A stretch of DNA of 42,063 nt from assembly GCA_947473305.1 (NCBI GenBank), contig CANJCB010000036.1, forward strand, positions 1-42,063. The letters run 5' to 3'. The notes under the pieces were generated by a model, which made no database searches, was not told where the DNA came from, and saw only the letters and a list, made by a program, of their open reading frames with translations. Within the stretch, counting starts at the first letter, position 1. The number at the start of each line of letters is the position of its first letter. Below are positions 2,010 through 41,986 of this stretch, one piece after another. The position numbers were made by a program, and so were the translations under genes. This stretch comes from Rhodospirillales bacterium. Lineage in GTDB: Bacteria; Pseudomonadota; Alphaproteobacteria; ATCC43930; CGMCC-115725.

Positions 2010-2193
2010 GCGAGTATCTCTTGAATCACGCTTTTTCTCTAGTCGGGCGTTTACCCGGGGCCCGGATCGATCCAGCTTATCGCCAATGACGATGCCCTAA
2101 GAATCCAGCCGAAATATCTAGGCGAAAACAAGCGTATCGCGCATGCTCAAGGCGGATCATGCGCTTTCGTGCAACGACAGAGGGGGAGTAAAC

Positions 2194-3258
2194 ATGGCGA
2201 AGACCTCTATCCTCAAAAACCGGCGGCAGTTTCTCGCCGGCGCGGCAAGTGTGGCCATCGCCGCGCCCTATGTGATTTCTTCGACGGCGCGAGCCCAGAA
2301 CAAGGTGGTTTACGTCAATACCTGGGGCGGCAGCTGGACCGCCGCTGAGGATGCGGCCTTCTTCAAGCCCTTCACCGCGGCCACGGGCATCGAGGTCCGC
2401 ACAGTAACCCCGGTTTCCTACGCCAAGCTGAAGGCGCAGGTGCAGAGCGGGACCTATGAATGGGATGTGTCCTCGCCGAGCCAGACCCAGACTCTGCGCG
2501 CGGATCTCGAAGGTCTCCTGGAGCCGATCGACCGGAAGATTGTCGACAAAAACAAGGTGCCGGACGACATGACCTTCCACAAAGGGGTCAATAACTCGGC
2601 GCTGTCCTATAACATCTGCTACCGCACCGATAAGTTCCCGAACGGCGGACCCAAGAGCTGGGCCGACTTCTGGGACGTCCAGAAATTCCCAGGCCGGCGG
2701 TCGCTTTACAGCGGCGATGCAGTAATCGCTGCGCTGCAGGGCCTGCTCGCCGACGGGGTGCCGCCCGGCAAGATGTATCCGGCGGATGTCGACCGCGCCT
2801 TCAAGAGTCTCGACAAGATCAAGCCCCATATCAAGGTGTGGTGGACCCAGGGCAACCAGTCGCAACAACTCCTGCGCGACGACGAAGTCGACATGATCGC
2901 GATCTGGAACGCGCGGGGCACCGAGTTGAAGACCCAGGGAGTTCCCGTCGAAGTCGTCTGGAACGGCGCGCTTCAATCCATGGGCTGCTGGATCGTCGCC
3001 AAGGGCTCGCCCAACAAGGGTGCTGCCTGGGAGTTCGTGCAATTCGCGGTGCAGCCGCAACCCCAGGCGGAATTCGCCAAACGGCTCTTCTATGGACCGT
3101 CGAATGCGAAGGCCTATGAGTTCCTCACGCCTGAGATCGCCAAGGAACTCCCGACTTATCCGCCATATCTGAAAGAATCGCTCATCCTAGACCCGGTCTG
3201 GGGCGGCGAAAATTCCAACAAGGTGGAAGAGCGCTTCAAGGCCTGGATCGCGTCCTAG
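2194..3258 (+). CDS. ABC transporter periplasmic substrate-binding protein, PotD/spermidine-putrescine family
   Basis: A 354-residue family-1 polyamine/opine-type binding protein. ATG 2194 is preferred over the in-frame start at 2143 because AGAGGGGGAG at 2180-2189 is a good ribosome site and the leader then begins properly: NRRQFLAGAASVAIAAP is a Tat-like twin-arginine signal ending near AQN. The mature part begins VVYVNTWGGSW and carries the PotD-family block PNGGPKSWADFWDVQKFPG. Its closest relative in the window is the truncated protein at 40991-41986, which shares the same blocks. No permease or ATPase gene follows directly: the next genes are a Rieske dioxygenase. It may feed the PotABC-like core at 7029-9714. 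The ligand is unknown. Confidence 0.9.
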   Translation: MAKTSILKNRRQFLAGAASVAIAAPYVISSTARAQNKVVYVNTWGGSWTAAEDAAFFKPFTAATGIEVRTVTPVSYAKLKAQVQSGTYEWDVSSPSQTQTLRADLEGLLEPIDRKIVDKNKVPDDMTFHKGVNNSALSYNICYRTDKFPNGGPKSWADFWDVQKFPGRRSLYSGDAVIAALQGLLADGVPPGKMYPADVDRAFKSLDKIKPHIKVWWTQGNQSQQLLRDDEVDMIAIWNARGTELKTQGVPVEVVWNGALQSMGCWIVAKGSPNKGAAWEFVQFAVQPQPQAEFAKRLFYGPSNAKAYEFLTPEIAKELPTYPPYLKESLILDPVWGGENSNKVEERFKAWIAS

Positions 3259-11394: not shown

Positions 11395-11427
11395 GCGTTA
11401 CTCTTGCCGCAAAGGGAGGACAGGGCG

Positions 11428-12489
11428 ATGAGCTATAAACCGGATCGACGCAGGGTTTTGATCGGAGCTGCCGCCTTGGCGGCGCCGATGATCGGGCATC
11501 GCAGGGCGCGGGCGGCGGAGCAGATCTATATCGGTTCTCCCGGCGGCGAATATGACGAGATCATGAAGCGGGCGATCGACGACCCCTTTACCAAGGCCAC
11601 TGGTATTCAGGTCACGCGGGTCGGTGTTTCCAATGGCAAGATTCTCGCCATGGTCCGCGCTAAGGACCTCGAGATCGATATTGCCGATCTTTCGAGCACC
11701 GCCGTCCTGACCCTGGAGCGGCTGGGGGCGCTCGCGCCGATCGACTACGACAAATGGCAGTTCGCCAAGAAGTCGGACATCGCGCCGGGGCTCCTGCTGA
11801 CCCATGGCGCGCCGATATACAACCTTGCTCATTGCATGGTCTATAACACCAAGGCGTTCCCGGCGGGCAAGCGGCCCAAGACCTGGGCCGACGCCTGGGA
11901 TGTGGAGCGGTTTCCGGGGCCGCGCGCCTTTCCCGACATGGCCTTCAGCCAGGCCCATTTCGAATTCGCCCTGCGCGCCGACGGGGTGCCGAAGGACAAG
12001 CTTTATCCCCTCGATCTCGACCGGTCGCTGAAATCCTTCTCCAAGATCCGTCCCAAGGTCGTGAAGTTCTTCACGACCGGTGCGCTTTCCGCCCAGATCT
12101 TCACGGACGAGGAAGCCGTGGTCGGCAGCACCACCTCAGGTCGCGCACAGACCATGGTCGACAAGGGCGCGCCCGTCGCCATCGAATGGAACGACCATCT
12201 TCTCTTCGCCGAATGCCTCGTGGTCTTCAAGGACGGCAAGAACGTGTCGGCTGCGCAGAAATTCGTCGATTTCGCCGGTCAGGCTTCGGCCCAGGCAGCC
12301 TTCGCGAAAGACCTCAAATATGGACCGGCCAACGTCAAGGGCTTCGAACTCTTGCCGCCTGAGATCGCCAAGACCATGCCGGGCCATCCCGATACGCGGG
12401 ACCTTGCCATCCATGTGGATCTCGGCTGGTGGGCGGACAATCGCGAGCGCGCGACCGATCTCTGGAACAAGTGGATGCTGCTCGGGTAA
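11428..12489 (+). CDS. ABC transporter substrate-binding protein, PotD-like (tandem copy 1)
   Basis: A 353-residue periplasmic protein. ATG 11428, preceded by AAAGGGAGGA, gives a Tat-like leader (DRRRVLIGAAALAAPMI, cleavage probably after RARAAE). The mature start EQIYIGSPGGEYDEIMKRAI and the block RPKTWADAWDVERFPGPRAF are typical of the PotD/AfuA-like group. It is clearly paralogous to the next gene (both share LERLGALAPI-YDKWQ, DGVPKDKLYPLD and TGALSAQ). It lies 33 bases after the decarboxylase and probably delivers ligand to the PotABC-like core upstream. Confidence 0.9.
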   Translation: MSYKPDRRRVLIGAAALAAPMIGHRRARAAEQIYIGSPGGEYDEIMKRAIDDPFTKATGIQVTRVGVSNGKILAMVRAKDLEIDIADLSSTAVLTLERLGALAPIDYDKWQFAKKSDIAPGLLLTHGAPIYNLAHCMVYNTKAFPAGKRPKTWADAWDVERFPGPRAFPDMAFSQAHFEFALRADGVPKDKLYPLDLDRSLKSFSKIRPKVVKFFTTGALSAQIFTDEEAVVGSTTSGRAQTMVDKGAPVAIEWNDHLLFAECLVVFKDGKNVSAAQKFVDFAGQASAQAAFAKDLKYGPANVKGFELLPPEIAKTMPGHPDTRDLAIHVDLGWWADNRERATDLWNKWMLLG

Positions 12490-12541
12490 TCGAAGGGGCG
12501 GTTGAGCGACCGTCTGAACACTGAGATTGAGGAGGATGGCA

Positions 12542-13618
12542 ATGGCGTCAGGAAAGCTTGGTGGAACGGTTACGAACAGGCGCCGGGTCCTCGCGACCGG
12601 AACGGCTCTTTTCGCGACGCCTTTTCTCTGGCGGACGGCGAGGGCGGCGGAGCAGGTCTTCGTCAAAAATGCCGGTGGCGCCTACGAGGATGTCATGCGG
12701 AAGGCGGTCTATGATCCCTTCACCAAAACGACCGGCATCGAGGTCGTCCCCGTCGCCGCGAGCAGTGGCAAGCTCCTGGCGATGTTCCGGTCGAAGAACG
12801 TGGAGGTCGATGTCATCGATATCGCCACCGGGCCGTTGCTCAGCCTCGAACGGCTGGGGGCTCTCGCCCCCATCGCCTACGACAAATGGCAATGGGGCAG
12901 GCGGGCCGAGTTGAACCCGGAGCTGACCACCGAGTTCCGCACGCCCAATTATTACTTCGCCCAGGTGATGGTCTACAGCAAGACCCTCTATCCCACCGAC
13001 AACCGGCCGCGCAACTGGCCGGAATTCTGGGATCTGGCGAAATTTCCAGGGCCTCGCATGTCGCCGGATCTTGCCTTCAACCAGCCGGATTTCGAATTCG
13101 CGCTGATCGCCGACGGGGTGCCGAAGGACAAGCTCTATCCGCTGGACATCGACCGGGCGCTTCGTTCGCTGACGAAACTGCGGCCGAGCGTGCGGAAATT
13201 CTACGAGACGGGCGCTCTCTCGGCGCAGATGCTGATCGACAAGGAAGTCGGTCTCGGCACCATGACCAACGGCCGCGCCCAGACAGTGATCGACCAGGGC
13301 GCCCCGATCGCCATCGATTGGACGGATCATCTCGTCTTCTCGCAGTCCTACGGCATTTTCAAGGACGCGCGAAATCTTGCCGCGGCACAGAAGTTCGTCG
13401 ATTTCGCGGCCCAGGCGCCGATCCAGGCGGCCTATGCGAAGGAATTGCGCTATGGGCCGGGCAACCTGAAGGCGCTGGATCTCATTCCGAAGGAGATCGT
13501 CGACCAGATGCCGGGAACGCCCGCCAAGCGGTCCCAGGCCATCTTCCAGGATGCCATCTGGTGGGAAGACAATCGCGAGAAGGTGACCGCGGCTTGGAGC
13601 AAGTGGCTTCTGACGTAG
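12542..13618 (+). CDS. ABC transporter substrate-binding protein, PotD-like (tandem copy 2)
   Basis: A 358-residue paralogue of the preceding gene. ATG 12542 is favoured because GAGGAGG at 12529-12535 lies six bases ahead. ATG 12536 is too close to it. The leader NRRRVLATGTALFATPFLW is Tat-like, with cleavage near ARAAE. Shared blocks with copy 1 include EQVFVKNAGGAYEDVM, the LERLGALAPI segment, FEFALIADGVPKDKLYPLDI and ETGALSAQM. Keeping two diverged copies suggests different ligands or affinities feeding one transporter (inference). It is the last gene of the plus-strand run. Confidence 0.9.
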   Translation: MASGKLGGTVTNRRRVLATGTALFATPFLWRTARAAEQVFVKNAGGAYEDVMRKAVYDPFTKTTGIEVVPVAASSGKLLAMFRSKNVEVDVIDIATGPLLSLERLGALAPIAYDKWQWGRRAELNPELTTEFRTPNYYFAQVMVYSKTLYPTDNRPRNWPEFWDLAKFPGPRMSPDLAFNQPDFEFALIADGVPKDKLYPLDIDRALRSLTKLRPSVRKFYETGALSAQMLIDKEVGLGTMTNGRAQTVIDQGAPIAIDWTDHLVFSQSYGIFKDARNLAAAQKFVDFAAQAPIQAAYAKELRYGPGNLKALDLIPKEIVDQMPGTPAKRSQAIFQDAIWWEDNREKVTAAWSKWLLT

Positions 13619-15759: not shown

Positions 15760-16070
15760 AATTTTTTCCGCATCCAGGGATGTCTGGCCTTCCTCCAGTT
15801 TCGCGCGCTCGGGCGGGGCGACTAGTCGAGCACCCCCAAACCCTTAAAATTCGATCGCACGCTAACTGAAAGGGGGTTCGACGCTCAGATCGGGGCGGCC
15901 GATGCGAGCGTTCATGATATTTTTAAGGCGTTCCAAGAGGGTGTTTTTTGCCGTAAATATCCCTGGCGGAGACTGTTTGGAGATGAATTTCTTGTCCGGC
16001 GCCTCCTTCGGTAGTCTCCCAGGCGATATCGCCAGCTCTTCTTATGGGCCCTATGCAGAGGCGTTGGCGA
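15760..16070. other. 311-base divergent intergenic region
   Basis: This gap separates the minus-strand NTF2-like/thiolase operon from the plus-strand amino-acid transporter operon, so it should hold both promoters. I see an imperfect inverted repeat (GTCGA ... CCCCC at 15825-15837 against GGGGGTTCGAC at 15872-15882) and an AT-rich patch around 15911-15960 with two T-runs. No convincing -35/-10 pair, riboswitch or coding sequence is recognisable. Confidence 0.5.
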
Positions 16071-16733
16071 ATGTACGATTGGGACTTCAGTATCTTGTGG
16101 CAGTTCCGCTGGCTACTCCTGGTGGGGCTCGGCGTCACTCTGCTCTTCACCCTCGCCACCAGTCTCTTAGGTCTCCTGATCGGCACGGTGGTGGCCCTCT
16201 TGAGGCTCATCCCGTCCTGGTTCACCACGGCGCCGCTGCTCGCCTATGTCGGGCTTTTCCGCTGCACGCCGGTGCTGGTTCAGTTGATCTGGTTCTATTA
16301 CGCGCTGCCGGGGCTTACAGGGATCATGCTGACGCCCTCGCTTGCGGCGGGACTGGCGCTTTCGCTCTATGGTGGAGCTTTCTTTGCCGAGATCATCCGG
16401 GGCGGCATTGTCTCTATCGAGCCCGGGCAATGGGACGGCGCCCGGGCGCTGGGCATGCGGCGGCACGAGATGATGCGGCGGATCATCCTGCCGCAGGCGA
16501 TCACCCGGATGCTGCCGGCGCTCGCCAACCAGGGCGTACTCCAGCTTAAGAACACATCGCTCGCCTCGGCCGTCGCCGTGCCGGATCTCCTCTACCAGAG
16601 CCAGATCATCACGGCGGAAACCTATCGGCCGCTGGAGGTCTATACGGCGGTGGCGATCATCTATCTCGTTGTGCTCTTCCCCCTGACCCTGGCGGTACAC
16701 GGCCTCGAAGTCTGGCTTGGGAGGGACCGCTGA
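16071..16733 (+). CDS. Amino-acid ABC transporter permease, HisM/GlnP family
   Basis: A 220-residue inner-membrane protein. ATG 16071 (MYDWDFSILWQFRW) has GCAGAGG upstream. In-frame ATGs at 16044 and 16053 would add up to nine non-conserved residues. The family core is clear: LFRCTPVLVQLIWFYYALP, then SLYGGAFFAEIIRGGIVSI and the EAA loop GARALGMRRHEMMRRIILPQ, ending with the polar-amino-acid permease motif LKNTSLASAVAVPDLLY. Only one permease is encoded, so a homodimer is likely. It overlaps the ATPase gene by one base. Confidence 0.92.
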   Translation: MYDWDFSILWQFRWLLLVGLGVTLLFTLATSLLGLLIGTVVALLRLIPSWFTTAPLLAYVGLFRCTPVLVQLIWFYYALPGLTGIMLTPSLAAGLALSLYGGAFFAEIIRGGIVSIEPGQWDGARALGMRRHEMMRRIILPQAITRMLPALANQGVLQLKNTSLASAVAVPDLLYQSQIITAETYRPLEVYTAVAIIYLVVLFPLTLAVHGLEVWLGRDR

Positions 16734-17521
16734 TGTCAGGGCATGAGGGCGGCCGAACCATGGTTGAGGTCAAGGACCTCAAACTCTCCTATGGCGAGAA
16801 TCAGATCCTGAGAGGCGTCTCGCTCACGGTGCCCGAGGGCGGCATCTTGGCGATCATCGGGCCGAGCGGATCGGGCAAATCCACCCTGCTGCGCTGCATC
16901 AACCTGCTGGCCCGGCCCTCTGCGGGCAGTGTCCGCGTCGGATCCGAGGCCGTGACCTTCGACGGCTCGAAGCGGCGGATCCTGCCGGATCGCGCGCTGG
17001 CCGCCTTCCGCAGCAACACCGGCATGGTGTTCCAGCATTTCAATCTCTTCCCCCATATGACGGCCCTGGAAAACGTCATGGAGGGGCCGGTGACGGTGCG
17101 CAAGCGTCCGCGCGCCGAGGCTGAGGCGGCTGCCCGCGCGCTCCTCGCCAAGGTCGGACTTTCCGACAAGGCCGACGCCTATCCGGGAAAGCTCTCGGGC
17201 GGGCAGAAGCAGCGGGTGGCCATCGCCCGCGCCTTGGCCATCGAGCCCTCGGTCATGATGTTCGACGAGGCGACCTCGGCGCTCGATCCCGAACTCGTCG
17301 GCGAGGTCCTCGCGGTGATCCGCCAGCTCTCTAACGAAGGCATGACCATGCTGATCGTGACCCACGAGATGGCCTTCGCCCGGCAGATCGCCGACCGGAT
17401 CATCTTCATGCGCGACGGCCTCATCGTCGAGGAAGGCCCGGCGCAGAGCCTGATCGACAATCCGGTCGAGGAATCGACGCGCAGTTTCCTCGCCCATTTC
17501 AAGGGAGCCGGCCTCACATGA
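16733..17521 (+). CDS. Amino-acid ABC transporter ATP-binding protein, GlnQ/HisP family
   Basis: A 262-residue ATPase of the polar-amino-acid uptake class. Walker A GPSGSGKST is near residues 43-51. The family insert GMVFQHFNLFPHMTALENVM and the signature KLSGGQKQRVAIARAL follow, then Walker B with FDEATSALDPELVGEVL and the H-loop TVTHEM-like segment (seen as LIVTHEMAFAR). ATG 16733 overlaps the permease stop (TGATG). ATG 16760 is an alternative nine codons in. Its 3' end overlaps the next gene by four bases (ATGA), so translation of permease, ATPase and racemase-like protein is coupled. Confidence 0.93.
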   Translation: MSGHEGGRTMVEVKDLKLSYGENQILRGVSLTVPEGGILAIIGPSGSGKSTLLRCINLLARPSAGSVRVGSEAVTFDGSKRRILPDRALAAFRSNTGMVFQHFNLFPHMTALENVMEGPVTVRKRPRAEAEAAARALLAKVGLSDKADAYPGKLSGGQKQRVAIARALAIEPSVMMFDEATSALDPELVGEVLAVIRQLSNEGMTMLIVTHEMAFARQIADRIIFMRDGLIVEEGPAQSLIDNPVEESTRSFLAHFKGAGLT

Positions 17522-18231
17522 CGCCACGCCGCAAGACCGTTCATGGGGTAAGCATCGGGATCCTGATGCTCGACACCGGCTTCGAGCGACTGCCGGGCGA
17601 TATCGGCTATGCGCCGACCTGGCCCTTCCCGGTCCATTACCGCATCGTCAAGGGCGCGACCGGCGTGCGGCTCCTCTCCCAGGGTGGCGGCGGGTTGTTG
17701 GATCACTTCGTCGAGGCGGCGAACGATCTGGTGGAGATGGGCGTCGACGGGATCGCCACGAGTTGCGGTTTCCTGGCGCTTTTCCACAAGGAGTTGACGG
17801 CGCGCTGCCCGGTTCCCGTAGCGACCTCAAGCCTTCTGCAGATCCCCTTCGTGCAGTCGATGCTGCCGGCCGGCAAGCGGATCGGCGTGCTGACCGCTGA
17901 CAGCGACGCGCTGACGGCCGATCATTTCCGCGCGGTCGGCTGTCCCACGGACCTGCCGGTCGTCGGCGTGCCGCCCACGGGCGTCTTCCGGAAGGATTTC
18001 CGCTCGCCCTCGCTTAAGGTCGATCCCAAGGCGCAGGAAGAGGAAGTTTTGGGAATGGCGGCCCGGCTTTTGGGAGAAAACCGGGATATCGGCGCCATCG
18101 TGCTGGAATGCACGAATCTCGCGCCCTATTCCGCGAGCATCGCGGAAACCTTCCAGATTCCGGTCTTCGACGTAGTCACGCTGGTCAATTGGCTCCATGC
18201 TGGCTTGCGGCCGACGCGCTACCAACGATAA
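17518..18231 (+). CDS. Asp/Glu/hydantoin racemase-superfamily protein
   Basis: A 237-residue two-domain protein. The two catalytic cysteines of the superfamily are present: Cys83 in GIATSCGFLALF and Cys198 in VLECTNLAPY, so racemase or epimerase chemistry is possible. The N-terminus (GVSIGILMLDTGFERLPGDI, then TWPFPVHYRIVKGA) is the pattern of the uncharacterised aspartate/glutamate racemase group rather than MurI. It sits inside an amino-acid transporter operon, before the binding protein and a flavin dehydrogenase. That suggests it adjusts the stereochemistry of an imported amino acid (inference). Confidence 0.82.
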   Translation: MTPRRKTVHGVSIGILMLDTGFERLPGDIGYAPTWPFPVHYRIVKGATGVRLLSQGGGGLLDHFVEAANDLVEMGVDGIATSCGFLALFHKELTARCPVPVATSSLLQIPFVQSMLPAGKRIGVLTADSDALTADHFRAVGCPTDLPVVGVPPTGVFRKDFRSPSLKVDPKAQEEEVLGMAARLLGENRDIGAIVLECTNLAPYSASIAETFQIPVFDVVTLVNWLHAGLRPTRYQR

Positions 18232-19120: not shown

Positions 19121-20236
19121 ATGCGGAGGGATTACGATGTCGCGGTGGTCGGCGCCGGACTGGTCGGCGCCGCCATCGCCTATGGCCTGGCGAAGGACGG
19201 CAGGCGCGTCTGTCTCCTTGACGAAGGCGACATCGCGCTCCGCGCCTCGCGGGCGAATTTCGCCCTCGTCTGGGTGCAGACCAAAGGGCACGGCTATCCG
19301 CCCTACGCCATCCTGACGCATCGCTCCGCCAGTCTCTGGTCCAGCTTCGCCCAGGAGGTCGAAGCGGAGACCGGGGTCGACCTGGGTTTCCAGCAGCCCG
19401 GCGGCTTCACCTTCGCCCTCTCGGAGGAGGAGCTGGAGGGCCGCCGCCGCATCCTCGACGAGGTTCAGGCGCAGCCGGGCGTGCCCGATCTCGGCTCCCG
19501 GATCGTGCTGCGCAACGAACTGATAAGCCTCATCCCCGAGGCCGGTCCAGAGGTGGTGGGCGCGAGCTATTGCGCCAAGGACGGCCACTGCAACTCGCCG
19601 CGCCTGCTGCTTGCCCTTCATCGTGGGTTCGGGATGCGGGGCGGCGATCTTCTGACCAATCGCACGGTAGAGACGATCACCGCAGGCCGCGACGGCTTCA
19701 GCATCCTCGGCGAGGGCGAGGAAATCCAAGCCGGAAAGATCGTCCTGGCCGCCGGGCTTGGGAATATCCGGCTGGCGCCCATGGTGGGGCTCGACGCCCC
19801 GCTCCAACCGCTCAAAGGCCAGCTTATCGTGACCGAGAAGGTCAGGCCCTTCCTGCACTACCCCTTGGTGAACCTCCGCCAGACGGACGAGGGCGGGGTG
19901 ATGATCGGCTCCTCGATGGAGGACATGGGCTTCGACACCTCGAGCGTCGTGCCCGTCGTCGCGAATATGGCCAAGCGCGCGATCCGGCTTTTCCCCCTGC
20001 TCGCCGAGGCGAATATCGTGCGGAGCTGGGCGGGGCTCCGGATCATGACGCCGGATGGCTTTCCGCTTTACGAGCAATCCCAGGAAGCACCCGGGGCCTT
20101 CCTCTGCAATTGCCACAGCGGCGTGACCCTCGCCGCAGCTCATGCGGGCGATCTTGCCCAGGCCATCGGACGGGGCAATCTGGATGGTTTCGGTGCCTTC
20201 AGCGGGGAGAGGCTCCGTGTTCAAGCGGCTCAGTGA
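19121..20236 (+). CDS. FAD-dependent amine/amino-acid dehydrogenase catalytic subunit (HcnC/DadA-like)
   Basis: A 371-residue DAO-fold flavoprotein. The dinucleotide-binding motif VVGAGLVGAAIAYGL places GxGxxG at residues 10-15 with Glu35 closing the ribose site. The C-terminal FAD block RSWAGLRIMTPDGFPLYE and the CNCHSGVTLAAAHAG segment fit the glycine/D-amino-acid oxidase family. ATG 19121 begins 11 bases after the binding-protein stop. The two genes that follow encode the iron-sulfur and FAD/NAD-fold subunits, so this is the substrate-oxidising subunit of a three-component enzyme like HcnABC, opine oxidase or D-hydroxyproline dehydrogenase. It oxidises a C-N bond to an imine. The exact substrate is unknown. 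Confidence 0.88.
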   Translation: MRRDYDVAVVGAGLVGAAIAYGLAKDGRRVCLLDEGDIALRASRANFALVWVQTKGHGYPPYAILTHRSASLWSSFAQEVEAETGVDLGFQQPGGFTFALSEEELEGRRRILDEVQAQPGVPDLGSRIVLRNELISLIPEAGPEVVGASYCAKDGHCNSPRLLLALHRGFGMRGGDLLTNRTVETITAGRDGFSILGEGEEIQAGKIVLAAGLGNIRLAPMVGLDAPLQPLKGQLIVTEKVRPFLHYPLVNLRQTDEGGVMIGSSMEDMGFDTSSVVPVVANMAKRAIRLFPLLAEANIVRSWAGLRIMTPDGFPLYEQSQEAPGAFLCNCHSGVTLAAAHAGDLAQAIGRGNLDGFGAFSGERLRVQAAQ

Positions 20237-20513
20237 AGCTTCGGGCCGCGTCCTTAGCTTCACCTTCGACGGCCAGCCGCTGGAGGGCCGCGAGGGCGAC
20301 AGTCTCGCGGCGGCGTTGCTGGCCGGCGGGGTCGGAGTTTTCCGCACCACCGTCCCCTCGGATGCGTCGCGCGGCCCCTATTGCCTGATGGGCGTCTGCT
20401 TCGACTGCCTCGTCGAGGTGGATGGCGTGGCGAACCGCCAGGCCTGCATGATCCCGCTGCGCGAAGGGATGTGTGTCACGCCCCAGCGACGGGCAAGGCA
20501 GCTTGGGGAATGA
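20217..20513 (+). CDS. [2Fe-2S] small subunit of the three-component dehydrogenase (HcnA-like)
   Basis: A 98-residue ferredoxin-like protein. GTG 20217 has GGGGAGAGG just upstream and lies 20 bases inside the end of the previous gene. The ligands are Cys56-x4-Cys61-x2-Cys64-x12-Cys77 within YCLMGVCFDCLVEVDG, the plant-type cluster found in HcnA and in the small subunits of opine oxidases. It carries electrons between the flavin subunits. Its 3' end overlaps the next start (ATGA). The signature is diagnostic despite the small size. Confidence 0.9.
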   Translation: MFKRLSEASGRVLSFTFDGQPLEGREGDSLAAALLAGGVGVFRTTVPSDASRGPYCLMGVCFDCLVEVDGVANRQACMIPLREGMCVTPQRRARQLGE

Positions 20514-21916
20514 GGCGCCTCGGCGCGGTCGATGAGCTTGCGGCGACCTATGACCTGGCGATCGTCGGTGCCGGCCCTGCGGGCCTTTCCGCCGCCGTCA
20601 CGGCTGGGCAATTCGGCCTCTCGGTGCTGCTGGTGGACGAGAAGACCGCACCGGGCGGTCAGATCTATCATGGCATCGCTGCGAGCCCCTTGAAGCGGGG
20701 TTCCATCCTTGGCCCCGACTATTGGTCGGGTGCGGCGCTGGTCGAAGGCTTCGCCGCCGCTGATGTGGATTATCTCGCGGGCGCCATGGTCTGGCAGCTC
20801 GACCAGGACCGCCATCTCTATATCGGCGCGGACGGCAAGAGCCGACGCATCGCGGCGCAGGCCGTCATCCTCGCGACCGGCGCGCAGGAACGGCCCTTTC
20901 CCATCGAGGGATGGACGCGGCCCGGCGTCATGGGCGTTGGAGCGGCCCAGATGCTGCTGAAGTCCTCGGGCCTGATCGCCGAGGGTCGCGTGGTGCTGGT
21001 GGGCGCCGGCCCGCTGCTCTGGCTTTTCGCTGCGCAGATGATCGCGGCCGGCAGCCCTCCATCGGCGATCCTGAGCACCGCCGCCACGCCTTCGCTTGGG
21101 CGTCTCATCCCGCTGCTGCCCTCGTTTTTGGCCTCGGCCTATGCCCGCAAGGGCCTTTCTTTGGTGCAGCGGGTGAGGCGTGCCTCCCGCCTCGTTTCGT
21201 CCGTGACCGATCTCAGGATCGAGACGGGCGAAAGCGGCCTCAAAATCGCCTATCGCGCGGGCGGGCAGGCGGAGCGGATCTTTGAGGCGGAGCATGTCCT
21301 GCTCCATCAGGGCGTCGTGCCCAATCTCAACCTAATCCGTTCCGCGGGCTGCACGATCGCCTGGGATGACGCCCAGGCCTGCTGGCATCCCATTGCCGAC
21401 GACTGGGGCGCATCGAGCGTCGAGGGCATCGCTGTTGCGGGCGACGGCGCTGGCATCCAGGGCGCCGAGACGGCGGCCCGGCGCGGGCGGCTTGCGGCGC
21501 TCGATGCGGCTTGCCGCCTGGGCCGGATCGACGGTGCGGCAAGGGACCGCGCGGGGGCCGAAGACATCGCAGCGATAGGGAAAGACGCCAAGGCGCGGCG
21601 TCTTCTCGACGTGCTTTATCGTCCGACAGCGGCGTTCCGCATGGGCTCGCCGAAAGCGCTCGTCTGCCGCTGCGAAGAGGTCACCGGCGAGCGCATACGC
21701 CAGGTCGTGCGCGAGACGAAAGCTGTCGGTCCCAATCAACTCAAGACCTATCTGCGCTGTGGGATGGGGCCTTGCCAGGGCCGCTTCTGCGCGCTCACGG
21801 TCAACGAGATCATCGCTGAGGAACGTGGTATCTCCCCCGGTAAGATCGAACCCATGCGTGTCCGGCCGCCCATCAAGCCGATCACCGTGGCGGAATTTGC
21901 GGCCCTCGACCTCTAA
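20510..21916 (+). CDS. FAD/NAD(P)-fold large subunit with C-terminal iron-sulfur domain (HcnB/OoxA-like)
   Basis: A 468-residue pyridine-nucleotide-disulfide-oxidoreductase-fold protein. ATG 20510 overlaps the HcnA-like stop (ATGA). The in-frame reading from 20381 is out-of-gene extension. The N-terminal FAD motif IVGAGPAGLSAAV is at residues 18-30, then a second nucleotide motif VVLVGAGPLLWLFAAQMIAA near 161-180. The C-terminal BFD-like [2Fe-2S] domain has Cys386-x-Cys388 and Cys417-x4-Cys422 (RCGMGPCQGRFC). This domain order is that of HcnB and the alpha subunits of nopaline/octopine oxidase and hetero-oligomeric proline or hydroxyproline dehydrogenases. Confidence 0.9.
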   Translation: MRRLGAVDELAATYDLAIVGAGPAGLSAAVTAGQFGLSVLLVDEKTAPGGQIYHGIAASPLKRGSILGPDYWSGAALVEGFAAADVDYLAGAMVWQLDQDRHLYIGADGKSRRIAAQAVILATGAQERPFPIEGWTRPGVMGVGAAQMLLKSSGLIAEGRVVLVGAGPLLWLFAAQMIAAGSPPSAILSTAATPSLGRLIPLLPSFLASAYARKGLSLVQRVRRASRLVSSVTDLRIETGESGLKIAYRAGGQAERIFEAEHVLLHQGVVPNLNLIRSAGCTIAWDDAQACWHPIADDWGASSVEGIAVAGDGAGIQGAETAARRGRLAALDAACRLGRIDGAARDRAGAEDIAAIGKDAKARRLLDVLYRPTAAFRMGSPKALVCRCEEVTGERIRQVVRETKAVGPNQLKTYLRCGMGPCQGRFCALTVNEIIAEERGISPGKIEPMRVRPPIKPITVAEFAALDL

Positions 21917-21949: not shown

Positions 21950-22723
21950 ATGCCCATAAGAGTAGGCATTCTGGGCTTTACCGGAAAAATCGGCGCGCTC
22001 TGCGTCGGGCTCTGCGACGGCAAGGATCTGGTCTTCGCGGGCGGCGTGATGCGTCCCGGCTCGGCGAAGAGCCTGCCACCCGGGGCCACCATCCATGCGG
22101 ATGTCGCAAGCCTCGCCAAGGCCTCGGACGTGGTCGTCGATTTCACCCATGGCAGCCAGGTAGAGGCCCATGCCAAGGCCCTGGCCTCGGGCCCGGCGGC
22201 TTGGGTTGTCGGAACCTCCGGCGTTTCCGAGGAAGGCCGCGCCGCGATCAAGGCGGCGTCCCAGAAGATCCCGGTGGTCTTCGCCGCCAATTTCTCCCTG
22301 GGCATGAACGTCATGCTCGCGCTTGCAGAACGGCTTGGCAGCGCGCTTCCCGCCGAGAGTTACGACGCCGAGATCATCGACATCTTCCATCGCCTCAAAG
22401 TCGATGCGCCCTCTGGCACCGCCGAGGAGATCGCCCGCGCCGTGATGCGCGGCCGGGGCGAGACGGCGGAATGGGAAATCGGCCGAAGCGGGCATAGTCC
22501 CCGGAAACCTGGAGCCATCGGCTTCTCCTCGCTGCGGGGCGGTGCGGTCGCGGGGGAAAATACCCTCATGATGACGAGCCGGGCCGAGCAGACGGTGCTG
22601 ACCCACAAGGTCGGCAACCCCCGGGTCTATGCCAAGGGGGCAATGCAGGCGGTGCGCTGGGTCCAGGGTCGCAAGCCCGGCCTCTATTCCATGAAAAACG
22701 TCGTCGCGGGAGACGCACAATGA
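21950..22723 (+). CDS. DapB-like (4-hydroxy-tetrahydrodipicolinate reductase family) protein, copy A
   Basis: A 257-residue protein with the full DapB fold pattern: a glycine-rich nucleotide loop GILGFTGKIG, VVDFTHGSQV, VVGTSGVSEEG, FAANFSLGMNVML (111-123), KVDAPSGTAEEI and the C-terminal GIGF-like and AVRWVQGRKPGLYSM segments. At the catalytic site E. coli DapB has His159-His160-x-x-Lys163. Here the run is Phe146-His147-Arg148-Leu149-Lys150, so the proposed acid His159 is lost while Lys and the SGT anion-binding loop remain. It is unlikely to be the lysine-pathway enzyme. Context points to a catabolic imine or enamine reductase, or a sensor of that ligand (inference). It overlaps copy B by four bases. 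Confidence 0.82.
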   Translation: MPIRVGILGFTGKIGALCVGLCDGKDLVFAGGVMRPGSAKSLPPGATIHADVASLAKASDVVVDFTHGSQVEAHAKALASGPAAWVVGTSGVSEEGRAAIKAASQKIPVVFAANFSLGMNVMLALAERLGSALPAESYDAEIIDIFHRLKVDAPSGTAEEIARAVMRGRGETAEWEIGRSGHSPRKPGAIGFSSLRGGAVAGENTLMMTSRAEQTVLTHKVGNPRVYAKGAMQAVRWVQGRKPGLYSMKNVVAGDAQ

Positions 22724-23502
22724 GCCTTCGGATCGGCATCGCGGGCATCACCGGCCAGGTCGGCCGCCTGCTCATCGACGAGATCGGCCGGGCGGGCGCC
22801 ACGCTCTCGGGCGGCACCATCAGGCCCGCCTCCAGCAAATCCGTGCCGCCGGGCATCGCGACCTTTACGGACCTCGAAGAACTGGCGGCGGTCTCGGACG
22901 TGGTGATTGATTTCACCCATGCCGATGTGGTGATCCCCAATGCCCGCGCCCTGACGGCCAAAAAGACCGCCTGGGTCATCGGCACCTCGGGCCTCACCGC
23001 GGCGGACGAGGCGGCGATGCAGGCGGCTGCCAAGACGATCCCGGTCCTCTATGCGCCGAGCTTCGCGCCCACGGCCGTGTTGACACCGGAACTGGTAACG
23101 ACCCTCGCCAGCAGCTTGCCCACCGCCGACTACGACGTGGAGATCCTGGAGACCCACCACAAGCACAAGGTGGACGCGCCTTCGGGCGTTGCCATCGCGG
23201 TCGGCAAGCATATTGCCAAGGCGCGCGGGCAGGTCTTCGACGAGGTGGCGGTGCTGGGCCGGTCGGGCAATGTCGGCCCACGGAAGCCCGGCGCCATCGG
23301 CTTCGGCGCGATCCGCGCGGGCGAGATCGTGGGGGAGACTTCGGTCTTCTTTCTCAGCGACGACGAGCAGATCGTCTTGACCCGACGCGTGCTGGACCGT
23401 TCCGTCTACTCGGCGGGCTCGGTCTTCGCGGCGCGGTGGCTCGCGAAGAAGCCGCCGGGCTTCTATTCGATGAAGGACGTGCTGCAGGGGCGGGAGCGCT
23501 AG
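22720..23502 (+). CDS. DapB-like protein, copy B (tandem paralogue)
   Basis: A 260-residue paralogue that aligns without gaps to copy A over at least the first 160 residues. It keeps the catalytic run ETHHKHKVDAPSG (His146, His147, Lys150) but has Val157 where DapB has the substrate-binding Thr170, and the loop that reads AANFS in copy A and in E. coli is APSFA here (112-116). So each copy deviates where the other is canonical. ATG 22720 overlaps the stop of copy A (ATGA), implying coupled, near-equimolar synthesis. The gene ends on a CTAG shared with the stop of the convergent gene. Confidence 0.82.
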   Translation: MSLRIGIAGITGQVGRLLIDEIGRAGATLSGGTIRPASSKSVPPGIATFTDLEELAAVSDVVIDFTHADVVIPNARALTAKKTAWVIGTSGLTAADEAAMQAAAKTIPVLYAPSFAPTAVLTPELVTTLASSLPTADYDVEILETHHKHKVDAPSGVAIAVGKHIAKARGQVFDEVAVLGRSGNVGPRKPGAIGFGAIRAGEIVGETSVFFLSDDEQIVLTRRVLDRSVYSAGSVFAARWLAKKPPGFYSMKDVLQGRER

Positions 23503-25129
23503 TTTCTCGGCTGCTGGCGCTCCTGTTGTCGCCAGTCTCGCCAGGCATCTCGCCAGGTGATGAGAAATTGCTCGTCCTCTATGCCATGGATCGTCCGTGA
23601 CATGCCGTCGTAGTAAGCGCCTTCCCGGATCGAGAGCACCGGCAAATCATCCGCCAGGATGGCTTGGACCTTGCGATAGGCCTCGCCGCGCTTTTCGCGG
23701 CCCACGGCCTGCTCTCCCTCCTCGAACAACGCATCAACCTGGGGGTTGGAATACCCCGACCCGTTACCGAAAGGCTTCTTGATCGATGAGGTGATCCAGG
23801 TGCGCGCCATGCCGAGAGCCGGATCGCCGAAGCTCGTGTAGCCGTTCATGAAGACATCGAAATCGTAGTCGTCATACATGCGCTTCGTGGCGCTCGTCCG
23901 GTCGACGGACTCGATCGCGACATCGACTCCGATCGTGCGCCACATGCTCTTTACCGCCGCCGCGACCAGCGCTCCGTCCTTGTCGTCCGCCGCGATCAGG
24001 AAGGTTGCCTTGAAGCGAGTCCCATCAGCACCCCGCTTGAAGCCCGCCGCGTCCAGTTCCGCGTTGGCTTGGTCGGGGGCATAGGCATACATCTTGCGAT
24101 AGTCGATATCGGGATTTGCCGCCCAGGCGAGTTGGGCCGGGAAGGGCATGATTCCCACCTTGCCGACATCCAGAAAGGCGGTGTGCAGCACCACGTCCCG
24201 GTCGATCGCCCGCATCAAGGCCTGCCGGACCCGCTTATCGTCGAACGGCTTGCGCTTCACGTTGAGGAACAGAAAGGTCATGCTCGGCGGGGTCGGCGAC
24301 AGGACCAGCTGCAGCTTGGGGTTCGCCTTGACCACCGGCAGATCGTTGAGCGCCAGATAGAAATTGGTGACGAAATCGACCTCCCCGTTGATCAGCGCCT
24401 GGGTGCGGGTGGAGGATTGCGGGATGATCTTGGCGATCACCTCGTCGAGGTAAGGTTTCCCCGGTTCCCAATAATCGGGATTGCGGGTGAGCCTGATGTA
24501 ATCGCCCCGTTTCCATTCCTTGAGCAGGAAGGGGCCGAGGCCGACCGGATTTGTCAGCGTCGCGGGGGGTTCTGCAGGGGATTGGTGCCCTCATAGACGT
24601 GCTTCGGCAGGATGGCGCCACCCTGCTGGCAGGCGAGCGACACCAGGAAGGGGCCATAGGGCGCCTTCAGGCGGATTACCACCTTGTCGGGGGCGGGCGT
24701 GTCGATCCCCTCGATCATGCGGCCGGCTCCGGCGAAGACCGAGCTGTATTTCGCGCTGACTTCGAGCAGCGTGTATTTCACGTCCTCGGAGGTGAAGGGC
24801 TTGCCGTCCTGCCATTTCGCTTTCACGAGGTCGAAGCTGTAGGTCTTGCCGTCGGGGGAGACCGTCCAGGATTTCGCCAGCATCGGTTGAGGGTCGAGCT
24901 TGGCATCCATCCGGGTGAGGCCCTGATAGATGACGCAGGCGATATGCCCGTCGGCATTGTTGCTGCCGACGTTGCGATTGAGCGTGCTGGGATCGCCGCC
25001 CAGCGCGAAGACGAGGGTCCCGCCGCGCTTGGGTGCGGCAGTCTGCGACCAGCCGGTGGCAGGGACCGCCGCCGCCAGCGTCGCGGCCAGTCCGGAAATG
25101 ACGAGAGAGCGCCACGTGTTCCTGATCAT
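23499..25129 (-). pseudogene. Peptide/opine-type ABC substrate-binding protein (family 5, DppA-like), frameshifted
   Basis: Minus-strand ATG 25129 starts a normal leader (IRNTWRSLVISGLAATLAAA, cleavage near WSQTA) and a family-5 mature chain: KRGGTLVFALGGDPSTLNRN, then ILPKHVYEGTNPLQN. At a run of six G on the plus strand (24564-24569) the frame breaks and TGA follows at 24554. In the shifted frame the sequence continues at once with ATLTNPVGLGPFLLKEW and NPDYWEPGKPYLDEV, then runs to the normal C-terminus, about 540 residues in all. A one-base loss or two-base gain in the homopolymer explains it. It could be a real mutation or an assembly error. It lies 11 bases after the aminotransferase gene. 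Confidence 0.85.
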
Positions 25130-25140
25130 GATGGTCCCTT

Positions 25141-26328
25141 TCAGCGCGCGAAGCGGAGCAAAGCCTGTCCCATGCGGGCAATAATCTCCTGCAGGATGGC
25201 GGTGGAGGTGGCGAAGTTGACGCGAACGAAATCCCGATAGCCCGGCGAAAAGCTTTCTCCCGGACTGAAGGCGACCCGGGCCTCCTTCAGGAAGAAGTCG
25301 CCCGCGCTGGTCGGCAAGCGCGCATCCCGGCAATCGAGCCAGGCGAAATAGGTGGCTTCCGGCGCGTGCCACCGCACAGCCGGCAGGGCGGTCCCGACCG
25401 CGGCTTCGAATTGCGCGCGGGCCTCGGTCAATCGAGCGAGAACCTGGCTCAGCCAAGGCTCGCCCTCACGCCAGGCCGTGATAGCCGCATCCATGCCGGC
25501 GATACCGGGCTGGCCCAGCAGGCGGCGGGGAATCCGCCGATGGAAGCGGTCCTTCAACTCCTGCGAGCCGAAATGCATGACGCCGCAGCGCAGGCCCGGA
25601 ATATTGAAACTCTTGGCGGGGGAGGTGATCGTCACCGTGCGCTTCGCGGCCTCGGCCGAGAGCGCAGCGAGCGGCATATGCCGCCGGCCCGGATAGACCA
25701 GATCCTGGTGGATCTCGTCAGAAACGATGACGAGATCGTGCCGCCGGGCGAGAGCGACGAGGGCTTCGAGTTCCTGCTCTTCGAAAACCCGCCCCGTCGG
25801 GTTGTGGGGATTGCAGAGAAGGATCATCCGGGTACCGGGATCGATGGCCCGCGCCAAGCCATCGATATCGAGAGTGACGCCTTCGCCGGCATCGACGAGG
25901 GGATTGTCGATAAAACGCCGGCCCGTCTCCCGGATCGCTTCCAGCATCGGCGGATAGCAGGGCGTTTGCAGCGCGATCCCGTCGCCCGGATCGGAAAAGG
26001 CCAGGATCGCGGCGAATTTGGCCTGGGCCAGATCCGAGACCGGAACAGCCAGGGCGGGATCGGCAGACCAGCCGAAGCGCTTATCCATCCACTCGCTGAA
26101 GGCCTGGGCAAGAACAACGGCCGGCTGCTGGCCCTCGCGCCGGGGATAACCGAAATCCTCCTGCGAGACGATCTCCTGCAGCGCCGTTTTGATGGGTTCC
26201 GCCGTGCGGAAGTCCATCTGGGCGATCCAGGCCGGAATCACGTCGGGCGGATAGGCGGTCCATTTGGCGCTCCGTTGCTGACGGAGTTCCTCCAGGGGAA
26301 TCTCGATGGAGGTTTCGCGAGAGGTCAT
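25141..26328 (-). CDS. PLP-dependent aminotransferase class I/II, MalY/PatB (C-S beta-lyase) type
   Basis: A 395-residue fold-type-I PLP enzyme. The MalY/PatB pattern is clear: RSAKWTAYPPDVIPAWIAQM at the start, then NPHNPTGRVF near 173-182, SDEIHQDLVY with the PLP-pyridine Asp204, and the Schiff-base lysine Lys239 in SPAKSFNIPGLRCG. Relatives cleave cystathionine, cysteine S-conjugates or djenkolate, and some are true transaminases. I choose ATG 26328 over 26397 because the latter starts within a regulatory palindrome and adds 23 unconserved residues. It diverges from the GntR regulator and is followed by a damaged binding-protein gene. Confidence 0.85.
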   Translation of the reverse strand: MTSRETSIEIPLEELRQQRSAKWTAYPPDVIPAWIAQMDFRTAEPIKTALQEIVSQEDFGYPRREGQQPAVVLAQAFSEWMDKRFGWSADPALAVPVSDLAQAKFAAILAFSDPGDGIALQTPCYPPMLEAIRETGRRFIDNPLVDAGEGVTLDIDGLARAIDPGTRMILLCNPHNPTGRVFEEQELEALVALARRHDLVIVSDEIHQDLVYPGRRHMPLAALSAEAAKRTVTITSPAKSFNIPGLRCGVMHFGSQELKDRFHRRIPRRLLGQPGIAGMDAAITAWREGEPWLSQVLARLTEARAQFEAAVGTALPAVRWHAPEATYFAWLDCRDARLPTSAGDFFLKEARVAFSPGESFSPGYRDFVRVNFATSTAILQEIIARMGQALLRFAR

Positions 26329-40990: not shown

Positions 40991-41986
40991 CTATCCGGCC
41001 ATCCAGGCGGCGAGCCGATCCTTGATCTCGCCGAAGCGCGGGGTGAGCCAATCGTAGTCAGGCTGTATTCCCTGGGCGAGCTTGTCCGGCGCCGTCGGAG
41101 AGATCGCGATTTGCTCCTTCGTCATGAAGTCGAAGGCTTTGGGGTTTCCGGGCCCGTAATTCTGCATGGTCGCAAAGAGCGCGTGCTGCTTGGGGTCCAG
41201 GAAGAATTCCAGATACTTGAAGGCGTTCTTGGCGCGGGGCGTTCCCTTCAGCACATAATATTTTCCACCGGTCTCCAGATGCGCCTGATTCCAGACCATC
41301 TCGATCGGCAGGCCTTGATCGACCAGCGACTGCGCGCCGCCGCTCCACATCGGCATCATATCGACCTCGCCGTCGCGCATGAGCGCCATGGCCTGCGCCC
41401 CTTGCGTCCACCAGATGGTGATATGGGGTTTGATCTCATCGAGTTTCTTGAAGGCTCGGTCCATGTCGAAGGGATAGACCTTGGAGGGTGGAACGCCATC
41501 GGCCATCAGGGCGAATTCGATCACGCTATTGGCCCTGACCAGCATGCCCCGCTTGCCGGGAAATTTCTTCACGTCCCAGAAGTCCGTCCAACTCCGGGGT
41601 CCGCCGTTCGGGAATTTATCCTTGCGGTAGACCAGGGTGGAGCCGCCCGTGACATCCTTGAAGCCGTCGCCCGAAATGCCGTCCTTTATGGCCGGGTTGT
41701 TCACATCGACCACGTTTCGGTCGAGTGGTTCGACCAGGCCTTCGAGATGGGCGGCGTGATACTCGATATCGGTCACGTCGAAGTCGTAATTCCTGGCCTG
41801 GATCTGCGCCTTCACCTTGGCAAGGGAAACCCCCTGAACGGGGACGACCTTAATCCCGGTCTTCGCGGTGAAAGGCCCGAAAAAAGCGGCCTCTTCGGCC
41901 TTCTGCCAGGAGCCGCCGAAGGTGCCGACATAGACTGTCAACGCCGGAGACAAAGGGAGCCACGTGGCGGAGGCAAAGGGAGCCAC
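40991..41986 (-). pseudogene. PotD-like ABC substrate-binding protein missing its signal peptide (5'-truncated)
   Basis: The mature binding protein is complete, from LTVYVGTFGGSWQKAEEAAF to IKDRLAAWMAG, and is a paralogue of the gene at 2194 (PNGGPRSWTDFWDVKKFPG in both with few changes). Upstream of LTVYVG there is no hydrophobic leader. The only in-frame start is a GTG at 41986 giving MAPFASATWLPLSPA, and an in-frame stop lies at 42038-42040. The start falls inside a 23-bp-period direct repeat and close to a terminator-like palindrome. The original 5' end appears to have been deleted, so the protein would stay in the cytoplasm if made. An alternative is a functional leaderless protein. Confidence 0.75.
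41945..41986. repeat. Imperfect direct repeat, 19-bp unit, 23-bp period
   Basis: Copies at 41945-41963 and 41968-41986 differ at one position (A41950 against G41973). The core CAAAGGGAGCCAC is identical at 41951-41963 and 41974-41986. It covers the apparent 5' end of the truncated binding-protein gene and may mark slippage or a deletion junction. Confidence 0.8.

What the first reader, a model, noticed from the sequence alone, without database searches (positions are those of the whole stretch)
21950..23502. Tandem DapB paralogues with complementary active-site deviations
Seen: the copies align gaplessly over 160 residues. Copy A has Phe146 in place of the first catalytic His but keeps AANFS and SGT; copy B keeps His146-His147-x2-Lys150 but has APSFA and SGV. 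The ATGA overlap implies near-equal synthesis. Inference: they may form a heteromer in which each copy supplies what the other lacks, or two reductases for two different imines.
Basis: partly seen in the sequence, partly recalled or inferred. Interest (0 to 1): 0.72.

Follow-up and report, generated by a model that had tools for sequence, protein, structure and literature searches.

The report
Tandem DapB-like reductases in catabolic operon
Two side-by-side relatives of a lysine-making enzyme sit at the end of an amino-acid uptake and breakdown operon with their active sites changed in different places, so they most likely reduce other nitrogen-containing compounds rather than make lysine or supply each other's missing parts.

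Summary
Copies A (21950-22723) and B (22720-23502) are intact DapB-fold proteins, 42% identical, joined by an ATGA overlap. A lacks His159 and Arg240 (E. coli numbering); B lacks Thr170 and Asn128. His159 and Arg240 are invariant in 141 other DapB sequences; Thr170 is kept in 139.

The pair is extra: the genome has its own dapB beside nth. A and B fall with Acetobacteraceae-type DapB; descent from the own dapB's clade is rejected (p-AU 3e-6). They end a nine-gene same-strand run: amino-acid ABC transporter, racemase, three-subunit flavin dehydrogenase (opine/D-hydroxyproline type), A, B.

Six other loci (five on named plasmids) carry the same kinds of transporter and dehydrogenase with one DapB-like gene whose five literature pocket sites are kept or lost as in A. 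A Thr170-less DapB stands alone on Sinorhizobium plasmids. Each pocket type thus occurs without the other, which speaks against mutual complementation.

Best reading: two repurposed NAD(P)H imine reductases acting after the flavin dehydrogenase on different substrates or steps. Substrate, activity and oligomer are untested; a heteromer is not excluded. New variant of a known kind.

The parts
16044..16733 (+). amino-acid ABC transporter permease
   Evidence: PF00528; 48-52% identical to the permease of six loci with a single DapB-like gene
16733..17521 (+). amino-acid ABC transporter ATPase, overlaps the permease by 1 base
   Evidence: PF00005; best NCBIfam PRK11264, below its cut-off; 53-55% identical to those six loci
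17518..18231 (+). Asp/Glu/hydantoin-racemase family protein, PRK07475 subfamily
   Evidence: PF01177, NF005679 above its cut-off; a 58% relative lies in a second dehydrogenase cluster of the same genome, L206
18270..19109 (+). family 3 solute-binding protein
   Evidence: PF00497; 31-34% identical to those six loci
19121..20236 (+). beta subunit of three-subunit flavin dehydrogenase (DAO domain)
   Evidence: PF01266; gene order as OdhB-C-A (PMC4575208 abstract and passages)
20142..20513 (+). gamma subunit, [2Fe-2S] Fer2_4 (true start uncertain)
   Evidence: PF13510; Cys-X4-Cys-X2-Cys-X12-Cys counted by eye in the translation
20510..21916 (+). alpha subunit, Pyr_redox_2 plus BFD-like [2Fe-2S]
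   Evidence: PF07992, PF04324
21950..22723 (+). copy A, DapB-fold reductase with Phe at His159 and Pro at Arg240
   Evidence: TIGR00036 165.5 bits, cut-off 122; residues; model mean pLDDT 90.6
22385..22387 (+). codon of Phe146 in copy A (E. coli His159)
   Evidence: sequence, alignment
22720..23502 (+). copy B, DapB-fold reductase with Val at Thr170 and Ser at Asn128
   Evidence: TIGR00036 179.1 bits, cut-off 122; residues; model mean pLDDT 90.9
23188..23190 (+). codon of Val157 in copy B (E. coli Thr170)
   Evidence: sequence, alignment
22720..22723 (+). ATGA overlap joining A and B

Best explanation
A and B are a tandem pair of repurposed DapB-fold, NAD(P)H-dependent reductases. They belong with Acetobacteraceae-type DapB, not with the genome's own dapB, and are best read as an acquired gene that duplicated and diverged (sister grouping only moderate). 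They work in a catabolic operon: the ABC transporter imports an amino or imino acid (inferred), the racemase sets its configuration (inferred), the beta-gamma-alpha flavin dehydrogenase oxidises it to an imine (inferred from its family), and A and B reduce imine products (inferred). Each copy keeps Lys163, which polarises the imine nitrogen, and His160, but each has lost contacts at a different end of the dicarboxylate pocket (A: His159 and Arg240; B: Thr170). They therefore most likely take different substrates or steps, perhaps cyclic imines with one carboxylate, each enzyme working on its own. Shown here: gene order, residues, predicted folds, rejection of descent from the own dapB's clade. 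Not shown: substrate, activity, oligomer.
For: Own dapB lies elsewhere, beside nth. Tree of 47 rows: A and B inside a clade with the 26 Acetobacteraceae-type rows (100/100), sisters 92/84, end branches 1.0 and 0.98 against a median of 0.27; holding A and B with the 12 rows of the own family and order costs 78.8 lnL, p-AU 3.1e-6. Nine same-strand genes, gaps at most 38 bases. Third-position GC 0.79 and 0.90 (other genes measured 0.76-0.86), no stops. Both predicted as full DapB folds (best Z 30.4 and 28.5, both solved DapB). Residue roles: PMC11489326 (passages), PMC5962572 (section 10). Parallel linkage: six loci (L264 of genome G080; plasmid loci L268-L272, of which L268 and L272 are near-identical) carry solute-binding protein, beta-gamma-alpha dehydrogenase, aldehyde dehydrogenase, one DapB-like, DapA-like, permease, ATPase and saccharopine-dehydrogenase-like genes; the DapB-like has Tyr159, His160, Lys163, Thr170, Asn220 and Leu/Val240 in 6 of 6: at the five literature sites (159, 160, 163, 170, 240) the same kept/lost state as A; B matches them at 2 of 5.
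Against: The tandem pair was seen in no other genome searched, so linkage of B to such an operon rests on one case. Over the 52 near-invariant positions A shares no more departures with the six proteins than chance (5, expected 4.7), nor does B (3, expected 3.4); sites 128, 220 and 235 were added after seeing the data. Whether A's likeness to the six is convergence or kinship is open: holding A with them is not rejected (p-AU 0.65, lnL 6 higher) and, with pocket columns removed, A and B join them equally well. 40 fetched regions with a closer dehydrogenase module hold no DapB-like gene. The window has no hit to the DapA-like, aldehyde dehydrogenase or saccharopine-like proteins of L264. A and B as a sister of all Acetobacteraceae-type rows is not rejected (p-AU 0.30); without pocket columns A-B sisterhood is unresolved.
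Confidence: 0.6

Rival explanations
1. A and B form an obligate heteromer in which each copy supplies catalytic residues that the other lacks.
For: Tandem genes with ATGA overlap; at the five literature pocket sites A and B never lack the same residue.
Against: Published DapB structure reads as one-chain sites with tetramers joined by the C-terminal domain (PMC5962572). Over 52 conserved positions joint departures are as frequent as chance. Both pocket types occur as single genes elsewhere.
Confidence: 0.07
2. B is the working reductase and A, without the general acid His159 and Arg240, is a catalytically weak or regulatory partner in a mixed tetramer.
For: Mutating His159 or Lys163 is said to drop E. 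coli DapB activity dramatically (PMC11489326 passages). Both copies are predicted with a complete C-terminal domain.
Against: A keeps Lys163, His160, Thr170 and Asn128; six single-gene proteins with the same losses at 159 and 240 sit in conserved operons without a second DapB-family hit in the DNA held.
Confidence: 0.13
3. Both are ordinary lysine-pathway DapB copies with tolerated substitutions.
For: Both pass the TIGR00036 cut-off.
Against: The genome has a normal dapB; none of the seven other operon proteins scanned is a lysine-pathway enzyme; each copy lacks a residue that contacts substrate.
Confidence: 0.05
4. The copies are decaying duplicates under relaxed selection and the pocket changes mean nothing.
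For: Long branches, about 1.0 against a median of 0.27; no close orthologue in the genomes searched.
Against: No stops and coding-type third-position GC; 41 and 44 of 52 conserved positions kept; confident folds; place at the end of a tight gene run.
Confidence: 0.1

Closest known systems
DapB, 4-hydroxy-tetrahydrodipicolinate reductase (TIGR00036; E. coli b0031)
   Same: Fold, length, Lys163, His160, Ser168-Gly169, family score above cut-off
   Different: A: Phe159, Pro240, Asn220. B: Val170, Ser128, Thr220, Arg235. Catabolic gene run; a separate dapB exists in the genome
DapB-like protein of the beta-gamma-alpha/DapA-like operon (L264, L268-L272; in three of the five plasmid records annotated as dihydrodipicolinate reductase C-terminal domain-containing protein)
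   Same: Operon with the same kinds of transporter and flavin dehydrogenase; pocket state of copy A (aromatic 159, Asn220, no Arg240, Thr170 kept)
   Different: Single gene, 24-29% identical to A or B; next to DapA-like, aldehyde dehydrogenase and saccharopine-dehydrogenase-like genes not found in the window
Three-subunit flavin opine / D-hydroxyproline dehydrogenase (OdhABC, D-HypDH; PMC4575208)
   Same: Beta-gamma-alpha gene order and domains, overlapping genes, neighbouring ABC transporter
   Different: No DapB-family reductase in the abstract and passages seen; substrate of the window enzyme unknown
DapB on Sinorhizobium plasmids (L145, L146)
   Same: Thr170 lost (Ala) with His159, His160, Lys163, Arg240 kept, as in B; beside a gene annotated dihydrodipicolinate synthase family
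   Different: Single gene, 33% identical to B and 50% to this genome's own dapB; keeps Asn128 and His220

Membership tests
DapB (HTPA reductase) | TIGR00036 score above 122 | tested here: met
   A 165.5, B 179.1
DapB (HTPA reductase) | DapB_N and DapB_C domains, DapB fold | tested here: met
DapB (HTPA reductase) | His159-His160-x-x-Lys163 | tested here: not met
   not met in A (Phe159); met in B
DapB (HTPA reductase) | Ser-Gly-Thr170 carboxylate contact | tested here: not met
   met in A; not met in B (Val)
DapB (HTPA reductase) | Arg240 | tested here: not met
   not met in A (Pro); met in B
DapB (HTPA reductase) | reduces HTPA with NAD(P)H | not testable with these tools
   needs an enzyme assay
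DapB (HTPA reductase) | tetramer through the C-terminal domain | not testable with these tools
   only single-chain prediction was available; both chains predicted complete
flavin opine/D-Hyp dehydrogenase (neighbours) | beta-gamma-alpha order with DAO, Fer2_4, Pyr_redox_2/BFD | tested here: met
   order as in PMC4575208
flavin opine/D-Hyp dehydrogenase (neighbours) | cysteine motifs of gamma and alpha subunits | tested here: inconclusive
   gamma motif present; alpha has C-X-C and C-X4-C but about 28 residues apart where the paper says 15-20 (translations counted by eye)
flavin opine/D-Hyp dehydrogenase (neighbours) | activity on an opine or imino acid | not testable with these tools
   needs an enzyme assay
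beta-gamma-alpha/DapB-like/DapA-like operon | transporter permease and ATPase of the same kind | tested here: met
   48-52% and 53-55%; best in 40 regions with other dehydrogenase modules 36% and 40%
beta-gamma-alpha/DapB-like/DapA-like operon | DapB-like with aromatic 159, no Arg240, Thr170 kept | tested here: met
   met by A, not by B
beta-gamma-alpha/DapB-like/DapA-like operon | DapA-like, aldehyde dehydrogenase and saccharopine-dehydrogenase-like genes | tested here: not met
   no tblastn hit of the L264 proteins in the window at 1e-8

The most novel reading that the evidence does not exclude
The two copies are orientation-complementary imine reductases. Each keeps only one carboxylate end of the DapB pocket intact (A: Thr170; B: His160/Arg240), so each would hold a one-carboxylate cyclic imine from the flavin dehydrogenase the opposite way round and give opposite stereochemistry, or take successive intermediates. 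With the single-gene operons this would mark an undescribed use of DapB-type enzymes in imino-acid breakdown, possibly on a 4-hydroxy cyclic imine resembling DapB's own substrate with one carboxylate missing.
Probability: 0.13. Interest if true: 0.72.

Novelty: new variant of a known kind. Interest (0 to 1): 0.5.

Why it matters
DapB is normally treated as a fixed lysine-pathway enzyme and the NCBIfam equivalog model would name both copies as such, although each lacks a substrate-contacting residue. If the reading is right, DapB enzymes have been reused more than once for breakdown of imino acids, with recognisable pocket signatures (aromatic 159 and no Arg240; or no Thr170), and automatic annotation misnames them. 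The window pair would be a ready test of how a dicarboxylate pocket is split into two specialised ones. The operon conserved in six loci also gives a defined target for finding the substrate.

Tried and rejected
Origin from the own dapB: rejected by AU test. Ordinary single-copy dapB mistaken for a pair: rejected, three DapB hits in the genome. Search for the same tandem pair: none in the relatives sample (61 genomes), class samples (385 at 1e-52; 372 at 1e-12), phylum sample (398 at 1e-48), own family (39 at 1e-52), order of G371 (299 at 1e-30); these samples overlap and the tool scores only a limited number of candidates per genome in some runs. In one search, 12 genomes besides G000 had two matches, four; one search placed them: none adjacent, and G1062's two are partial pieces that look like one gene split between contigs. 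Plasmids: 45 records, one place each. The 80 loci kept (of 494 confirmed relatives) each show one DapB hit in the DNA held.

Origin by transfer together with the dehydrogenase module: L065 (Rhodovarius MAG) has DAO-Fer2-PyrR 1.2 kb upstream of its only dapB match, and the window alpha subunit groups with its alpha subunit (SH-aLRT 98). But the beta-subunit tree does not show that grouping, A and B do not group with the L065 DapB, and a TctC-like gene lies between in L065. Left open.

Second DapB-like copies of other genomes: 10 of 12 were read (L250-L259; two were not fetched). Eight lack both His159 and His160, one (L252) has Tyr159, one (L250) is normal. The eight are a separate accessory group; the one locus of them that I looked at in detail (L261) shows no dehydrogenase module, and the tblastn found DAO/Fer2/PyrR only in L264 of the seven regions.

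Literature: ten searches of the open library listed no paper on tandem DapB, on DapB with such residues, or on this operon; most subscription papers are not in that library, so this does not show it is unpublished.

Structural libraries: only single-chain models were possible; A/A, B/B and A/B tetramers could not be compared.

Full report
What is there. Copies A (21950-22723) and B (22720-23502) are complete reading frames, 42% identical, gapless for 174 columns, with an ATGA overlap. Both score above the NCBIfam dapB cut-off (165.5 and 179.1, cut-off 122), match DapB_N and DapB_C, and are predicted as full DapB folds (mean pLDDT 90.6 and 90.9; best structural matches are solved DapB, Z 30.4 and 28.5).

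How unusual the residues are. Against 141 other DapB rows (140 from fetched loci plus E. coli) 52 positions are at least 95% conserved. A departs at 11, B at 8; no other row departs at more than 4 and the median is 0. In E. coli numbering A has Phe159, Asn220 and Pro240 but keeps Asn128, His160, Lys163, Thr170 and His235. B has Ser128, Val170, Thr220 and Arg235 but keeps His159, His160, Lys163 and Arg240. Three alignment modes agree. Departures common to both are as many as expected by chance (2 against 1.7), so the 'complementary' impression concerns the pocket only.

What the residues do. From passages of PMC11489326: His159 is proposed as general acid through a water, His160 contacts the C2 carboxylate, Lys163 polarises the imine nitrogen, and mutating His159 or Lys163 drops activity dramatically. 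From section 10 of PMC5962572: in the Paenisporosarcina enzyme Thr165 holds one carboxylate of dipicolinate, His155 and (through water) Arg236 the other, and Lys158 contacts the ring nitrogen. I equate these with Thr170, His160, Arg240 and Lys163 by their spacing; that mapping is mine. So A has lost two residues at one end of the substrate and B has lost one at the other end, and both keep the imine-polarising lysine. The same paper describes tetramers held by C-terminal domains and closure of the two domains of the monomer.

The pair is an addition. The genome has a third DapB at C2:178924-179709, normal in every pocket residue and next to nth and a murJ-like gene (nth and murJ named by my reading of the translations). 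In a 47-row tree A and B lie in a clade with the 26 Acetobacteraceae-type rows (100/100) and are sisters at 92/84, each on a branch of about 1.0 where the median is 0.27. Holding them with the rows of their own family and order is rejected (78.8 lnL, p-AU 3.1e-6). Whether they branch within or beside the Acetobacteraceae-type rows is not settled (p-AU 0.30). Each is 55-56% identical to a single-copy DapB (L036) but 42-43% to the other. Acetobacteraceae is the naming of the public titles; two titles in that clade (Nitrosovibrio, Solirubrobacterales) name other groups and may be mislabelled bins.

Rarity. No other tandem pair appeared in the samples searched (numbers and limits under Tried and rejected).

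The operon. Nine same-strand genes with gaps of at most 38 bases: permease, ATPase, racemase-family protein, solute-binding protein, DAO, Fer2_4, Pyr_redox_2/BFD, A, B. DAO-Fer2-Pyr_redox is the beta-gamma-alpha order of flavin opine and D-hydroxyproline dehydrogenases (PMC4575208, abstract and passages). That module was found at 1e-95 in 40 of 372 class genomes including this one. I fetched 40 of the 42 places other than the window's, one of them a second module of this genome; none shows a DapB-like hit in 5-19 kb. So the dehydrogenase does not usually travel with DapB.

A parallel case. Following second DapB copies of other genomes led to L264 (genome G080): beta, gamma, alpha, aldehyde dehydrogenase, a DapB-like protein, a DapA-like protein, solute-binding protein, permease, ATPase, saccharopine-dehydrogenase-like. 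Its DapB-like scores 108.7, below the dapB cut-off of 122. The plasmid collection holds five more: Pannonibacter (two, near-identical), Ciceribacter, Ensifer, Martelella, with the same gene set by annotation in three and by tblastn in all five (two records carry no annotation there). In 6 of 6 the DapB-like protein is the only DapB-family hit, and has Tyr159, His160, Lys163, Thr170, Asn220, Phe/Tyr235 and Leu/Val240. At the five literature sites this is A's state in full and B's in 2 of 5. The window permease and ATPase are 48-52% and 53-55% identical to those of these loci, against at most 36% and 40% in the 40 other module regions. Against: the dehydrogenase subunits are only distantly alike (alpha about 28-31%); over all 52 positions A shares no excess of departures with the six (5 against 4.7); the window lacks the DapA-like, aldehyde dehydrogenase and saccharopine-like genes. 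Trees cannot say whether A's likeness is convergence or kinship: with pocket columns A with the six is at least as likely, without them A and B join the six equally well.

A B-like case. Two Sinorhizobium plasmid DapB proteins beside a DapA-like gene have Ala at 170 and are otherwise normal at the sites listed. They are single genes and closer to ordinary DapB (50% to this genome's own), so the parallel to B is weaker than that to A.

Mechanism. I commit to two independent NAD(P)H reductases that act on imines made by the flavin dehydrogenase, with A and B specialised for different substrates or steps (0.60). Gene order, residues, folds and exclusion of the own dapB's clade are shown; import, oxidation, reduction and substrate are inferred. 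Mutual complementation in a heteromer (0.07), a weak or regulatory A beside an active B (0.13), redundant lysine enzymes (0.05) and decay (0.10) are the rivals.

Known or new. The fold and family are known; the residue sets, the tandem pair and its place in a catabolic operon make a new variant. Ten searches of the open-access library listed nothing on it. I do not file A or B as HTPA reductases, because each fails a tested defining residue.

Noticed in passing
window 23499-25456 (-): A family 5 solute-binding protein gene is split between two frames: 24557-25456 matches PF00496 positions 2-94 and 23502-24440 matches 153-362; a frameshift or assembly error lies near 24440-24557.
   Followed up: partly
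L206 (G000:C9:4000-23000): A second dehydrogenase cluster of the same genome holds DAO, Pyr_redox, Fer2 and a racemase-family protein 58% identical to the window's, with two TPP-enzyme-like frames between and oxoprolinase-like genes nearby (the last two named from reading the translations).
   Followed up: no
L251, L253-L259: An accessory DapB-like group in some class genomes lacks both catalytic His (motif around Lys163 reads KPD[AV]PSGTAR) while keeping Lys163 and SGT.
   Followed up: partly
G904, G921, G1054: Three genomes of the order of G371 carry two normal-looking, unlinked dapB copies.
   Followed up: no
L065:4047-8774: In a Rhodovarius MAG a DAO-Fer2-PyrR module and a TctC-like gene lie just upstream of the only dapB match of that genome.
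   Followed up: partly
window 2143-3258, 11404-12489, 12527-13618, 40991-41986: Four SBP_bac_8 solute-binding proteins, with two Rieske oxygenases (3445, 28734), a TPP enzyme (9724) and a 2OG-Fe(II) oxygenase (39887): the contig is rich in uptake and breakdown genes.
   Followed up: no
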